A stretch of 64,000 bases of DNA from Sipunculus nudus (Eukaryota > Annelida > Sipuncula > Golfingiida > Sipunculidae): assembly GCA_026874595.1 (NCBI GenBank), contig CM049311.1, positions 59,587,953 through 59,651,952 of the forward strand, in the 5' to 3' direction. A model generated the notes under the pieces. It saw only the letters and a list, made by a program, of their open reading frames with translations, was not told the DNA's origin and ran no database searches. Position numbers and translations under genes: made by a program. This document shows positions 1,049 through 55,000 of this stretch, piece by piece. Numbering within the stretch: the first letter of the stretch is position 1; the number at the start of each line of letters is the position of its first letter.

Positions 1049-4000
1049 GTAAGTAGTTCCTGTAATTGCAGGCTGTCAGGGAGAAGATGAATAAATGCTA
1101 TGTTATTTTATAATAAAAATAAAATGAAATACTTTATTAAAACTGCACTAGCATTTCTCTTTACACCCACAACCTCTTAAGAACAGCATAACTTTTCAAC
1201 CTCAGTTATTTCATGAATGTTTTTGTAACATACCTTTTTCTGAATGCATTTGTAGCTGTTTTTGCTTGAGAGCAAAATTTTACTGACTTGTTGAGACCAT
1301 TAACCTTGAGATATATATATCTTGTGGAGTTGGGTGTTATGACAATTATAATTGTCTTTACCAGATAACCCTTATGAACCTTTTTTGGGGTGAATCTGAG
1401 AAAAACTCTTAAGTAGATTTTAGTGATAAACTTTTAATAGATCTAAAACTTTGCATCTAGAGAATTTTTTTATTGGTTTACTAGATGGGTTTGGCAGTAA
1501 TTTATTGATAAAATATCAATATTTCATGAAAAAAGAAATGGTAGATTGATTAAAATACCTTCTTGCACAAGGTTCTGTGGGCCTGGTAAAGTCCTCACCT
1601 ATGAGAGTAATTTTAACCAGTTAGTTTTAACCAGCTATGGAATGTTTTAACTCGTAGCTGCTGTCTGATGAGAGCAACTTTAACCAGTTCAGTTTGACTA
1701 GCTTTGACCTGAACCAGTACATGAGACTAGACGCCGCAGCTGTCCGAGCTCTGAACATCTTACCCAGCCCTACAGAAGGTAAAATCTTTAACATCTTACC
1801 CAACCCTTCAGAATGTAAAATCTTAAACATCTTACCCAGCCCTACAGAAGGTTAAATCTTAAACATCTTACCCAGCCCTACAGAAGGTAAAATCTTAAAT
1901 GTCATACCCAACCCTACAGAAGGTAAAATCTTATACATCTTACCCAGCCCAACAGAAGGTAAAATCTGAAACATCTACAGAAAGTAAAATCTTAAACATC
2001 TTACCCCGCCCTACGGAAGGTAAAATCTTAAACATCTTACCCAGCCCTACAGAAGGTAAAATCTGAATTATCTTACCCAGCCCTACAGAAGGTAAAATCT
2101 GAATTATCTTACCCAGCCCTACAGAAGGTAAACTCTTAAACATCTTACCCAGCCCTACAGAAGGTAAAATCTTAAACATCTTACCCAGCCCTACAGAAGG
2201 TAAACTCTTAAACATCTTACCCAGCCCTACAGAAGGTAAAATCTTAAACATCTTACCCAGCCCTTCAGAAGGTAAAATCTGAAACATCTTACAGAGCCCT
2301 ACAGAAGGTAGACTCTTAAACATCTTACCCAACCCAACAGAAGGTAAAATCTTAAACATCTTACCCAGCCCTACAGAAGGTAAACTTTTAAACATCTTAC
2401 CCAGCCCTACAGAAGGTAAACTCTTAAACATCTTACCCAGCCCTTCAGAACGTAAAATCTTAAACATCTTACCCAGCCCTACAGAACTTAAATCTTAAAC
2501 ATACACAGGGCCTGGAACTTTAGAAGATTTTGTGACAAAAAGAACTTTCCCTGATCAATTATTTGTCCAATTCTTTGTTTTTTATTTTAATAGTTACAGA
2601 GTGGCTTGGGTCAAAGTTTTCTAAATATAACACTTTCAGTTTAATGCAGATTGATAGTGTTAATTACATGTCAGTTTTTGGTCATGAAACAACCAACAAG
2701 GAGACGCTCCCAGTATTTAAAATCAGCACAATGTAAGTCTTTTCATTATTTTGTAGCCCACCCTGAGGCCCCACTTTCTCACAATATAAGTAATGATACT
2801 GCTCATAAACCTTTCATCAGAATTCTTGTATTTGACTTTCATGTGTTATAATCTATGGATTACTTTGCAGGAGGAAACAAAAACCAGAGTGTCCTTGGTC
2901 TTTTGAATAAGTGTCGCACGGGTCAAGGTCAAAGGTTATTAGGTCAATGGGTCAAACAACCTTTGATGGATATTAACAAAATAGGTAAATATAACTCATA
3001 TTTTTGCTGGAAAAATATGAATATTCTGCTCTAAAATCTGAAATGATTTATATTAGATATAGTAAATAAAAATATTTATGGTAAATGCTAGGGCTTTAAC
3101 GTGTCACTGGTGCACCAATACATTGTGATATAATGTCAAATATTGTATCAGTATCATCAGATGTCCTTGCATTAACTCTTTGACAATTTTGGACCATCCA
3201 AAAGAAAGTTAGACATTAAACTGATGACTACTGGCATTTTATCATAGTCAGCAAGTTAGGCGATACATCATTGGCCAGGAATTTATTTTCAGCATCTGAT
3301 TGGTTAACTCCTGAATGATCAGATGAACATAATAAGTGCTTCATTCATTATGCTTGGATTCATGGACATGGCCAACATGAGCAAAGAAGAACTGGGACTT
3401 GGAATCATAATTCTGATACTCCTTCTTGTATCATCTCATAAGCATAGCATTGTATATAGAGCCCAGGGTTTTTCATTTAAACGGAAAAAAGGGTTGGAAA
3501 CAGAATTAGGGTTTTGAAAACGGAATCAGGGTTCACAAACAAACTTATATTAAATGCAGGAAATAGGGCGGAAATTTGGATTTGAGCAGATTTAAACTGT
3601 AAATAAAGAAGTTCTCAGCAAAAGCTGCCCCAGTCATCTACATAACAAGCAAGATATGACCATTTTGGCTCACAACCGTGACAGTAAGCACCAAGCTTTA
3701 CTGTTACGATTATTGATGAACATGCCAGAAATGCTGATACTGCTGTTATGTGATATGCAATGATGCGGTTTATTATTACATAAAATATAAAGATAAAAAA
3801 AAACAATAAATCCAGAATTTTGATTTTATTAAGACAGAAAATAATATTTTATAATATGGGAAAAAGGGGGCTCTGTGTACAGTATTGAGAAGTCTGATAA
3901 TGTATCTTTACAGCCTAGTGAATACTTCCATTTATACTTCAACCTAATTTCTATGTACTTTAGAAAGTCCTGAATTAAAAATGTTGCATTCAGAGATAAA

Positions 4001-52000: not shown

Positions 52001-55000
52001 TAACTCATGCCTGTCAGTATACATAATTCGTTATATATGTATCTATTATGTAGTCTGTGTTCTCTGTAATTCCTGGATAGAAAATGAGCCATCTTCTTTA
52101 TGTAACTGTAGTCTGCTACTGAGAATTCCTTGATAATTATTGATGAGCTGGGAAGAGGAACTTCAACTTATGATGGATTTGGACTTGCTTGGGCAATATC
52201 AGAGTAAGATCATGAATATGTAATATGTATATTTAAATATATGATGAGGTTAATCTATTTTTAGATTTTGATGTTTATATTAAGAATCAAAGTTGATGTG
52301 TTATCAAACTTAGAAATACCCATCCATCCAAGTATTAGTTGTTCCATATATGCTAAATTGTGGCGCTGACCTGAGTGAACTAGGTGAACATTGGCGTTTG
52401 ATCAAAATCATTTGTACTTATATTAAATCCATAATTGTACATAAACATTGTTGTACTGTTTTGTAACAATTTTTTGAGGAAATTTAGTTCTATAGAATGT
52501 CTTCTTTGTCACAAAGGTACATTGCCACAGAGATCAGGGCCTTTTGCTTATTCGCAACCCATTTCCATGAGCTGACCTCGCTAGCTGATGCAGAGCCAAC
52601 AGTGAACAACCTGCATGTGACAGCTCTGACTACACATGACACACTGACGTTATTATACAAAGTCAAGCCTGGTAAATATTCAGTTTCCTACTTTAGCAAA
52701 ATGAATCTAGTAAAATAATCAGGTATTTTTGTAATTTCATCTTTTGTTTTTTATAAGCCAAAAAGTAATGTAATTCTAAAAAATTTATTTCAAATTAGCA
52801 GTTTTGTACCAGCTTAAATAAATAATAAAACATAAAATTTTTCCACCATAAAGAAATAAGACTGAGCTTTGCATACACCCATCTGTGACGGGACATATAA
52901 TTGTATACCCATGGTCAAACTGTCCATCTGGCCATTAACTTTAAGTGTTGCAGTAATAGCTTACAGAGGCTTTGATGAATTTTCACGAAACTCACCAGAA
53001 CAGCTCACTATTAGATTATCTCACTTGAGTTTGTTTATCGGCAAAATCTATGAAAATTTTATTAAGTCAGAGGTCACCAGGTTAATTTGTGGTGTCCCAG
53101 CAATAACTTACAAAGAACATAATGCGATTTGATGAAACTCAACAGAAATATTAACCAATACAAAGCCTTGACTTAGTTCGATTCCTGGTAAAATCCATGC
53201 ATGTTTAACAAGGTCAGAGGTCACTAGACTTTTGTGGAGTTGCCATAGGTAACCAAAAATCTGATAGATTTACATGAACCTCATAAGAATTAACGAATAG
53301 TTTCTAACCAGAATTACATTCTCAGCAGATTTTACACATATTTCATGAATTCAGAGGTCCATGATATGTGATGAGTGCAATATGCACGATTTGCGGTGCT
53401 CTTGTTTAAGGAATGATTTGGAAGCATGTTTAACATATATTTCATAAAATGATGCTCCATCAAGCTTGTATTTTTTCTTTCAATAATGGTGCACCATCAA
53501 GCTGGTATTTTCTGTTTGTATAATGAGGCACCATCAAGCTGGTATTATCTGTTTGTATAATGAGGCACCATCAAGCTGGTATTTTCTCTTTCTATAATGA
53601 TGCACCATCAAGCTGGTATTTTCTCTTTCTATAATGATGCACCATCAAGCTGGTATTTTCTCTTTATATAATGATGCACCATCAAGCTGGTATTTTCTCT
53701 TTCTATAATGATGCACCATCAAGCTGGTATTTTCTGTTTGTATAATGATACACCATCCAGCTGGTATTTTCTGTTTGTATAATGAGGCACCATCAAGCTG
53801 GTATTTTCTGTTTTTATAATGCCGAGCATCAAGCTGTTATTTTCTGTTTGTCTAATGATGCACCATCAAGCTGTTTTTTTTCTGTTTCTTTAATGATGCA
53901 CCTTCAAGCTGGTATTTTCTGTTTGTATAATTATGCATCATGAAGCTGGTATTTTCTGTTTGTTCTAGGTGTATGTGACCAGAGTTTCGGTATTCATGTG
54001 GCAGAGCTGGCTCACTTTCCTAAACATGTGATTGAGGTGAGTACTGTATACCCTGCACAACCCAACTGCCATGGAGACTGGAGAGTTTTGTTTTTAACTG
54101 TGTTTGGGTGTTTGTGTTATCAGAACTGGCAGATCTGCAGCCTCATCTTGGTGGATCTCCTCTCTTCCAGTTTGAACTGCTGGTTCACAACCAGCTCTGA
54201 ATAGATACAGTTGAGATTTGAGGAGAGAAGAGAAGATGAAAAATATGAAATAAGATATAAGATAGGACTCTTTTAAAGATCAAGGGTTCCACTGACTATT
54301 TTGTACAAGTGTGCGTATAAGGGTCGCAGTCCTACAGGTACAGCCATCTAAATCATTGAAACAGAGTTTTAAGTGCTGTTTGGTGTAACATCAGATGAAA
54401 TAAGATCGCCAATGGGAATATCTGGATGAATCAGTCATTTGGTTGCTCCATTGAACCGAGTATCACCAGGGATTTCAATACTCAAAAATATTTACCTTCT
54501 TCTTACCTAGTTTTGCTTTTCCACTGGGAAATTTGCCTTTCCTTTTAAAGTAGTTAGATTATAAGCAAAACTAGTGTAAGTGATAATAATAGTTTATAAT
54601 TAATTTATTCCTGTTAATAATGTAAGATTGTTCATTTTGTTTATGAATATATCTTTGGTGTCTGTCTAATATTTACCTTTTCCCCTTCACAGTTTGCCAA
54701 AGAGAAGGCCATTGAGCTAGAAGACTATCAGGGAGTTAACATGATTGCCATCAGTAAAGATCAGGACGATGAGCCTGCAGCCAAAAAGAGACGACTGGAG
54801 AAACAGGTAATCACTGCGTGTCTGAGTCTGACATCGACAAATAATGAAAGCTATGATGTCCATCTGTCCAGGCTGACTAAAGTTGTATAATTAGAGGTAA
54901 CATATTTTAAGCTGTCCTTGTCATCATATTAAACCTGCTGATATGAAGTTTGATTAGTATTGTTTTGAATAATTTGATAATACTATACCCTAATATCGTA

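What the first reader, a model, noticed from the sequence alone, without database searches (positions are those of the whole stretch)
1658..54036. Five splice-site-anchored minisatellites in one MSH2 gene
Five tandem arrays (36, 30, 45, 45 and 37 bp units; 1754-2505, 4569-5034, 43556-43895, 50424-51290, 53430-53968) each begin or end exactly at an MSH2 splice site. Three copy a donor junction, one an acceptor junction with exon bases, one a polypyrimidine region. Other tandem repeats in the window are internal to transposons. Five independent expansions at splice junctions of the same gene look non-random. Possible explanations are a replication/repair process acting at exon borders, selection for splicing-related copies, or a genome-wide habit of this lineage. 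I do not know a described equivalent.
Basis: partly seen in the sequence, partly recalled or inferred. Interest (0 to 1): 0.88.

Follow-up and report, generated by a model that had tools for sequence, protein, structure and literature searches.

The report
Minisatellites grown from gene splice junctions
In this animal genome, short stretches spanning the border between a gene's coding piece and its intron have repeatedly been copied into long tandem arrays, in several genes and not only in the mismatch-repair gene MSH2, like the 'mirages' described in amphioxus.

Summary
TRF finds the five arrays in MSH2; four have units that contain exon bases, the fifth ends 5 bp before an exon. A DNA search finds each only at its own place in the 1.43-Gb genome. 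It is not an MSH2 peculiarity. Around 159 exons of myosin, MSH-paralogue and kinesin genes I found 22 arrays; by reading the sequences, 10 span a listed splice junction, 4 donors and 6 acceptors. A random locus (L258) held another. Part of the 'anchoring' is trivial: tandem-copy coverage is flat in introns (about 4-8%) and like random DNA, so arrays reaching an exon may simply stop there. But junction-spanning arrays are about 8-9 times too frequent for uniform seeding (P about 1e-5). Splice dinucleotides in the copies are not specially conserved, so selection for extra splice sites is not supported. A described equivalent exists: 'mirages', tandem repeats spanning exon-intron boundaries in amphioxus genes. 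Here the host looks like a mollusc. Best reading: neutral minisatellites, seeded preferentially at splice junctions by an unknown local-duplication process.

The parts
1658..1778 (+). MSH2 exon whose donor junction is copied in array 1
   Evidence: acceptor CTCGTAG|CTGC, donor ACAGAAG|GTAAAA
1754..2502 (+). Array 1: 36-bp unit, 21 copies, spans the donor (25 exon bases + 11 intron bases per unit)
   Evidence: found only here
4452..4568 (+). MSH2 exon whose donor junction is copied in array 2
4562..5027 (+). Array 2: 30-bp unit, 15.6 copies, includes 7 exon bases; donor GT lost in the consensus (AAAGCTAGG)
   Evidence: intron part found only here
43384..43555 (+). MSH2 exon whose donor junction is copied in array 3
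43536..43894 (+). Array 3: 45-bp unit, 8 copies, spans donor ATTGCAA|GTGAGT with 20 exon bases
   Evidence: intron part found only here
44095..44153 (+). Weak array, 23 bp x 2.8, ending about 3 bp before the next MSH2 exon (GYVEP, from about 44157)
   Evidence: below the score filter used for counts
50424..51314 (+). Array 4: 45-bp unit, 19.8 copies, spans acceptor TTTGTAG|ATAGG with 24 exon bases; every copy keeps the AG
   Evidence: intron part found only here
51291..51458 (+). MSH2 exon whose acceptor junction is copied in array 4
53448..53963 (+). Array 5: 37-bp unit, 13.9 copies, intron-side pyrimidine-rich repeat ending 5 bp before the exon; no exon bases
   Evidence: found only here
53969..54036 (+). 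MSH2 exon downstream of array 5

Best explanation
These are 'mirage'-type minisatellites: a segment of roughly 20-80 bp that straddles an exon-intron border was duplicated in tandem, the extra copies came to lie in the intron, and the array then grew and turned over internally. Only the copy at the exon is needed for splicing; the others drift. Shown: the arrays and their junction-spanning units; no second place for the five MSH2 arrays; the same anatomy in other genes at donors and acceptors; an 8-9-fold excess of junction-spanning arrays over uniform seeding; no special conservation of GT/AG among copies and no consistent gradient of similarity to the exon. Inferred: that the excess is a mutational bias (local re-copying at exon borders in the germ line, for example linked to transcription pausing, R-loops or chromatin edges at exons) and not a survival bias, and that normal splicing uses the exon-side site.
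For: Arrays and junctions. Other genes: 22 arrays passing one filter in 112 loci holding 159 exons. By reading the printed sequences, 10 span a listed junction (L003, L007a, L028, L032, L083a, L096, L124, L126, L148, L152) and an 11th (L026a) spans the donor of an exon not in the HMM list. The kinesin set was fixed by rule before its sequences were seen (first 78 of 126 rows; rule) and repeats the first result. Sliding null, ends within 60 bp: 7 of 11 arrays against 1.7 expected (P 2.8e-4) in the first set, 8 of 11 against 3.2 (P 1.7e-3) in the kinesin set; within 30 bp 6 of 11 against 1.2 and 6 of 11 against 2.0 (P 2.1e-4, 4.5e-3). Seeding rate: 10 spanning at 318 sites (17.4-kb target) against 11 non-spanning arrays in the remaining 156 kb of flank, ratio 8.2, P 1.3e-5; against 7 arrays in random DNA, ratio 9.0, P 1.8e-5 (the 109-kb effective random target is my hand estimate from array lengths; L026a is in neither count). 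Of the 7 random arrays, in 6 loci, two lie in L258 on either side of one exon and one of them spans its acceptor. Copies: core dinucleotides at mean percentile 0.52 of their units, 18 of 309 core mismatches against 418 of 6311 elsewhere, P 0.72, 14 of 15 arrays usable; no consistent gradient with distance from the exon (11 arrays).
Against: Array coverage is flat across introns and like random DNA, so border anchoring alone is largely what clipping at exons would give; the case rests on the spanning units, which I classed by eye. Exons come from two protein superfamilies plus a few MSH paralogues, and their edges were placed automatically. Densities rest on few arrays (11 and 7). Arrays not near a recognised exon exist (L026b; L041, L054, L075, L250, L257). 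No RNA, reads or related species were available, so neither splicing use nor mutation rate is shown.
Confidence: 0.68

Rival explanations
1. Minisatellites arise uniformly (about 5% of this genome). Those that reach an exon are stopped there by purifying selection, so their borders coincide with splice sites without any junction-specific process.
For: Tandem-copy coverage is flat at 4.4-7.5% from +45 to +400 bp into introns in both exon sets and 5.5% in 40 random loci; arrays away from recognised exons exist.
Against: By my estimate it lets only about unit/array length (roughly 10%) of exon-abutting arrays carry exon bases; 10 of 22 here, and 4 of 5 in MSH2, do. Spanning arrays are 8-9 times too frequent. 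In the 11 arrays examined, exon-derived bases occur in copies along the array and not only near the exon.
Confidence: 0.2
2. Copies are kept by selection because extra splice sites help or regulate splicing, as the title of the 1995 paper on the human 6-16 (IFI6, G1P3) minisatellite suggests for that gene.
For: In 13 of 14 arrays the consensus unit keeps AG or GT; 9 of 15 unit lengths are multiples of 3 (P 0.03, post hoc, two lengths uncertain by 1 bp). A first test with the authentic unit as reference seemed to show GT/AG conservation (237 of 245 against 4460 of 5103).
Against: One search was biased by its reference and failed on two arrays; with array consensus and 14 of 15 arrays the effect vanishes (mean percentile 0.52, P 0.72). 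Array 2 has lost the donor GT in its consensus.
Confidence: 0.06
3. The arrays are copies of a mobile or introner-like element that inserts at splice sites.
For: Several introns of one gene carry arrays.
Against: Each of the five MSH2 arrays is found only at its own place (the tool skips very common words, so this is not proof of rarity); units differ between loci and carry the local exon's bases.
Confidence: 0.02
4. Assembly artefact.
For: No reads could be examined.
Against: Copies within arrays differ (74-97% matches in TRF for the arrays at junctions), and the same anatomy recurs on seven large contigs (C3, C5, C6, C7, C9, C12, C14).
Confidence: 0.02

Closest known systems
'Mirages' of amphioxus (Adh3 of Branchiostoma floridae and B. 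lanceolatum; globins BflGb6 and BflGb9; TnC; similar repeats in PGBD5)
   Same: [quoted passage not shown] unit 10-72 bp in Adh3 and 150-160 bp in globins (passages of PMC3087553, and PMC3902484; the original Adh paper, PMC117041, was not held)
   Different: Here another lineage, a mollusc; several gene families sampled with a rate; no RNA or polymorphism data
Human 6-16 (IFI6, G1P3) minisatellite with multiple splice donor sites (Nucleic Acids Res. 1995)
   Same: A minisatellite carrying donor sites; only its title was seen, in a reference list; the paper was not held
   Different: One human locus, and the title says the donors serve the transcript; here use of copies is unknown
Dual-specific splice sites in tandem repeats (human UBC; PMC10809524)
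   Same: AGGT-bearing tandem units as raw material for new introns (passages)
   Different: In UBC the repeats are coding and spliced; here the copies lie in introns
Intron gain by tandem genomic duplication (potato RdRp gene, PMC4974935)
   Same: Tandem duplication linked to splice sites and introns (title and start of abstract in listings)
   Different: There an intron was gained; here no new intron was shown

Membership tests
Mirage minisatellite | tandem, minisatellite-like repeats | tested here: met
Mirage minisatellite | unit spans an exon-intron boundary | tested here: met
   4 of 5 MSH2 arrays (array 5 does not); 10 of 22 arrays at listed exons of other genes, plus L026a
Mirage minisatellite | both 5' and 3' boundaries affected | tested here: met
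   MSH2: 3 donors and 1 acceptor spanned; other genes: 4 donors and 6 acceptors of the 10
Mirage minisatellite | regular splicing undisturbed | not testable with these tools
   no RNA data
Mirage minisatellite | length polymorphism or somatic instability | not testable with these tools
   one assembly, no reads; no second copy of the MSH2 arrays found
Mirage minisatellite | internal homogenisation with cluster edges left out | tested here: inconclusive
   no consistent gradient over 11 arrays; in L032 and L083 the distant copies are more exon-like (rho -0.75, -0.68), L124 the reverse (0.46)
Introner or other mobile element | related copies at unrelated loci | tested here: not met
   five MSH2 arrays, each only at its own place

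The most novel reading that the evidence does not exclude
Exon-intron borders are intrinsic hot spots of tandem duplication in animal germ lines. In this lineage the process is strong enough that about 3% of sampled splice sites (10 of 318) carry a junction-spanning array, so that mirages are a broad metazoan route to new splice sites and introns and not an amphioxus oddity.
Probability: 0.4. Interest if true: 0.82.

Novelty: new member of a known kind. Interest (0 to 1): 0.6.

Why it matters
Tandem duplication of splice junctions is a proposed route to new introns and splice sites (PMC3087553). The mirages I met in print are all from amphioxus (listings; open-licence papers only, lists capped). 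A genome in which junction-spanning arrays are common and their excess can be measured makes both the mutational mechanism and the intron-gain model testable with ordinary long reads and RNA.

Tried and rejected
(1) Splice-dinucleotide conservation with the authentic unit as reference looked positive; redone with array consensus and a rank control it vanished, so it was rejected. (2) Border anchoring as the main statistic: judged insufficient after the flat coverage profile. (3) Mobile-element origin: not supported. (4) Exons beside random arrays: a simple codon-composition scan gave nothing convincing close to L041, L054 or L075 (the best segment near L075 scores 18.6 about 1 kb away), nothing in L250, only calls inside the repeat itself in L257, and one exon in L258. 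(5) L007b is probably the same array as L007a split by an insertion (same AGAAGTxCACAGGTA motif); L083b lies about 21 bp from another kinesin-like coding stretch; L001's array lies about 100 bp before another myosin-like stretch. All three are counted as non-spanning. Muscle-myosin exons were better.

Rows dropped: of 33 PF00488 rows, 20 on bacterial contigs and 4 of MSH2 itself were not used as controls, and 3 of the 9 paralogue rows were never fetched; of 126 kinesin rows only the first 78 were fetched. Two-copy arrays (L010, L037, L118) fall below the filter. Three of 60 random loci are all N. L148 was lost; A2 and L096. The coverage control used the first 40 random loci and a shorter MSH2 exon list.
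Full report
OBSERVATION. TRF confirms five arrays in the window inside a gene whose exon at 51291-51458 matches Msh2 far better than MutS, Msh3 or Msh6. Junctions are given. Arrays 1 (36 bp), 2 (30 bp) and 3 (45 bp) begin inside an exon and run over its donor; array 4 (45 bp) runs up to and over an acceptor; array 5 (37 bp) ends 5 bp before an exon. Arrays 1-4 reach 25, 7, 20 and 24 bases into the exon. Array 2's consensus has lost the donor GT (AAAG|CTAGG). 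A weak further array (44095-44153, below the filter) ends about 3 bp before the next exon. With one filter (period 20-200, at least 2.8 copies, score at least 100) 6 arrays remain in the window and 5 have an end within 30 bp of a splice site, 0.19 expected.

IS IT GENOME-WIDE? The window lies in a 1.43-Gb genome of 153 contigs. I took exons of other genes from HMM searches: 75 myosin-head matches plus 6 MSH-paralogue matches, fetched in 40 loci, and, as a replicate chosen by rule, the first 78 of 126 kinesin matches in 72 loci. The same filter finds 22 arrays. Reading the printed sequences, 10 have units that span the junction of a listed exon: donors L007a, L028, L032, L126; acceptors L003, L083a, L096, L124, L148, L152. 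One more (L026a) spans the donor of an unlisted exon. Seven stop about 20-65 bp from a listed exon (L027 three times, L094, L115, L131, L146). For L124 and L096 the automatic edge-finder put the acceptor elsewhere; I use my own reading. Sliding each array within its locus gives 7 of 11 anchored against 1.7 expected (P 2.8e-4) in the first set and 8 of 11 against 3.2 (P 1.7e-3) in the kinesin set, at 60 bp.

A RESULT AGAINST THE SIMPLE READING. A copy-counting profile independent of TRF shows no copies 45-60 bp inside exons, 2-3% of sites at the junction, and then a flat 4.4-7.5% from +45 to +400 bp; 40 random loci have 5.5%, and MSH2 introns more than 150 bp from the listed exons 6.5%. So arrays are not denser near exons; borders line up with exons partly because arrays do not extend far into them. 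Anchored borders alone would therefore not prove a special process.

THE DISCRIMINATING STATISTIC. What uniform seeding cannot easily give is the number of arrays whose unit itself straddles a junction. There are 10 at 318 sites (target 17.4 kb for a mean unit of 54.6 bp), against 11 non-spanning arrays in the remaining 156 kb of flank (ratio 8.2, P 1.3e-5) and 7 arrays in random DNA (ratio 9.0, P 1.8e-5). The random sample is 57 readable of 60 pieces, with an effective target of 109 kb estimated by hand. It is conservative: two of its 7 arrays, both in L258, lie on either side of an exon recognised by codon composition, and one spans the acceptor TTTGTACAG|GCTTAAG. MSH2, the discovery case, is not in these numbers.

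HOW IT WORKS. The copies carry the local exon's own bases, and the five MSH2 arrays are found only at their own place, so each most likely arose on the spot. The GT or AG dinucleotides are no better conserved among copies than other unit positions (mean percentile 0.52; 18 of 309 against 418 of 6311 mismatches, P 0.72; 14 of 15 arrays), which removes the support that an earlier, biased version of the test had given to selection. Copies close to the exon are not consistently more exon-like than distant ones, so there is no sign that arrays are continually re-seeded from the exon. The simplest account is local tandem duplication across the junction, tolerated because the extra exon bases become intronic, followed by neutral turnover. 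Why junctions are favoured is not shown. Donors and acceptors are hit in similar numbers (7 and 7 with MSH2), which speaks for something common to exon borders (transcription pausing, R-loops or nucleosome edges, from general knowledge) and not for one splice-site motif.

COMPARISON. Tandem repeats spanning exon-intron boundaries are known as mirages in amphioxus: Adh3, the globins BflGb6 and BflGb9, TnC, with similar repeats in PGBD5 (passages read). There splicing was reported undisturbed, arrays vary in length, and they were proposed as a source of introns. I could not read the original Adh paper. The human 6-16 minisatellite with multiple splice donor sites is a single-locus case (title only). 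The listings of searches over open-licence papers showed no report of mirages in molluscs or as a genome-wide feature; the lists were capped and most subscription papers are not in the library.

HOST. In a muscle-type myosin gene, the exon L012:524-691 has as its eight best PDB sequences 1dfk, 1dfl, 1b7t, 1kk7, 1qvi, 2os8, 2ec6 and 3i5f (86.3-85.4 bits, next 75.9), which I recall as scallop and squid muscle myosins; the exon L011:1017-1355 has the same entries among its ten best, mixed with two Myosin-6 entries. So the host is probably a mollusc. I saw 16 contigs of 63-111 Mb. Co-assembled bacterial contigs with a MutS weakly nearest to spirochaetes, among others, would fit a bivalve with style spirochaetes, but that is a guess.

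VERDICT. A real, non-random and apparently widespread feature, of a known kind (mirage minisatellites), in a lineage far from amphioxus, with a first estimate of junction bias. It is not specific to MSH2 and there is no sign that the copies are selected.

Noticed in passing
window 9937-18122: ORFs and TRF arrays recur at exactly 4377 bp spacing (for example 10901-11468 and 15278-15845 with identical TRF scores), so an intron holds a near-identical tandem duplication of a roughly 4.4-kb segment.
   Followed up: no
window 11693-12815, 46943-49290, 62362-63417; L055, L071, L079: Long-period (about 250-340 bp) tandem arrays, several with GGTGGCGCCACC-like cores, in introns and random DNA; they look like parts of a dispersed repeat family.
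   Followed up: no
G000 contigs C61-C91: Small contigs carry bacterial mutS-like genes of two types (9 rows with 885-893 aa frames, 11 rows with 779-806 aa frames), several with identical scores; the C89 protein is 60-65% identical to its best matches, a spirochaete MAG and Brachyspira among them.
   Followed up: partly
L011 (G000:C2:44844801-44854700): A muscle-type myosin gene has four HMM matches to about the same stretch of the motor domain (positions 109-153), as expected of mutually exclusive exons.
   Followed up: no
L027 (G000:C9:48047501-48051500): Two myosin exons have arrays 22-42 bp from three of their four splice sites, one of them 48 bp x 52 copies filling most of the intron between them.
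   Followed up: partly
L054 with L236 and L237 (G000:C4): A 51-bp array of at least 92 copies (over 4.7 kb) in random DNA, with no exon recognised nearby.
   Followed up: partly
15 junction-spanning arrays (4 of MSH2, 11 of other genes): 9 of 15 unit lengths are multiples of three (P 0.03, post hoc, two lengths uncertain by 1 bp): possibly chance, possibly weak selection against frameshifting use of copies.
   Followed up: no
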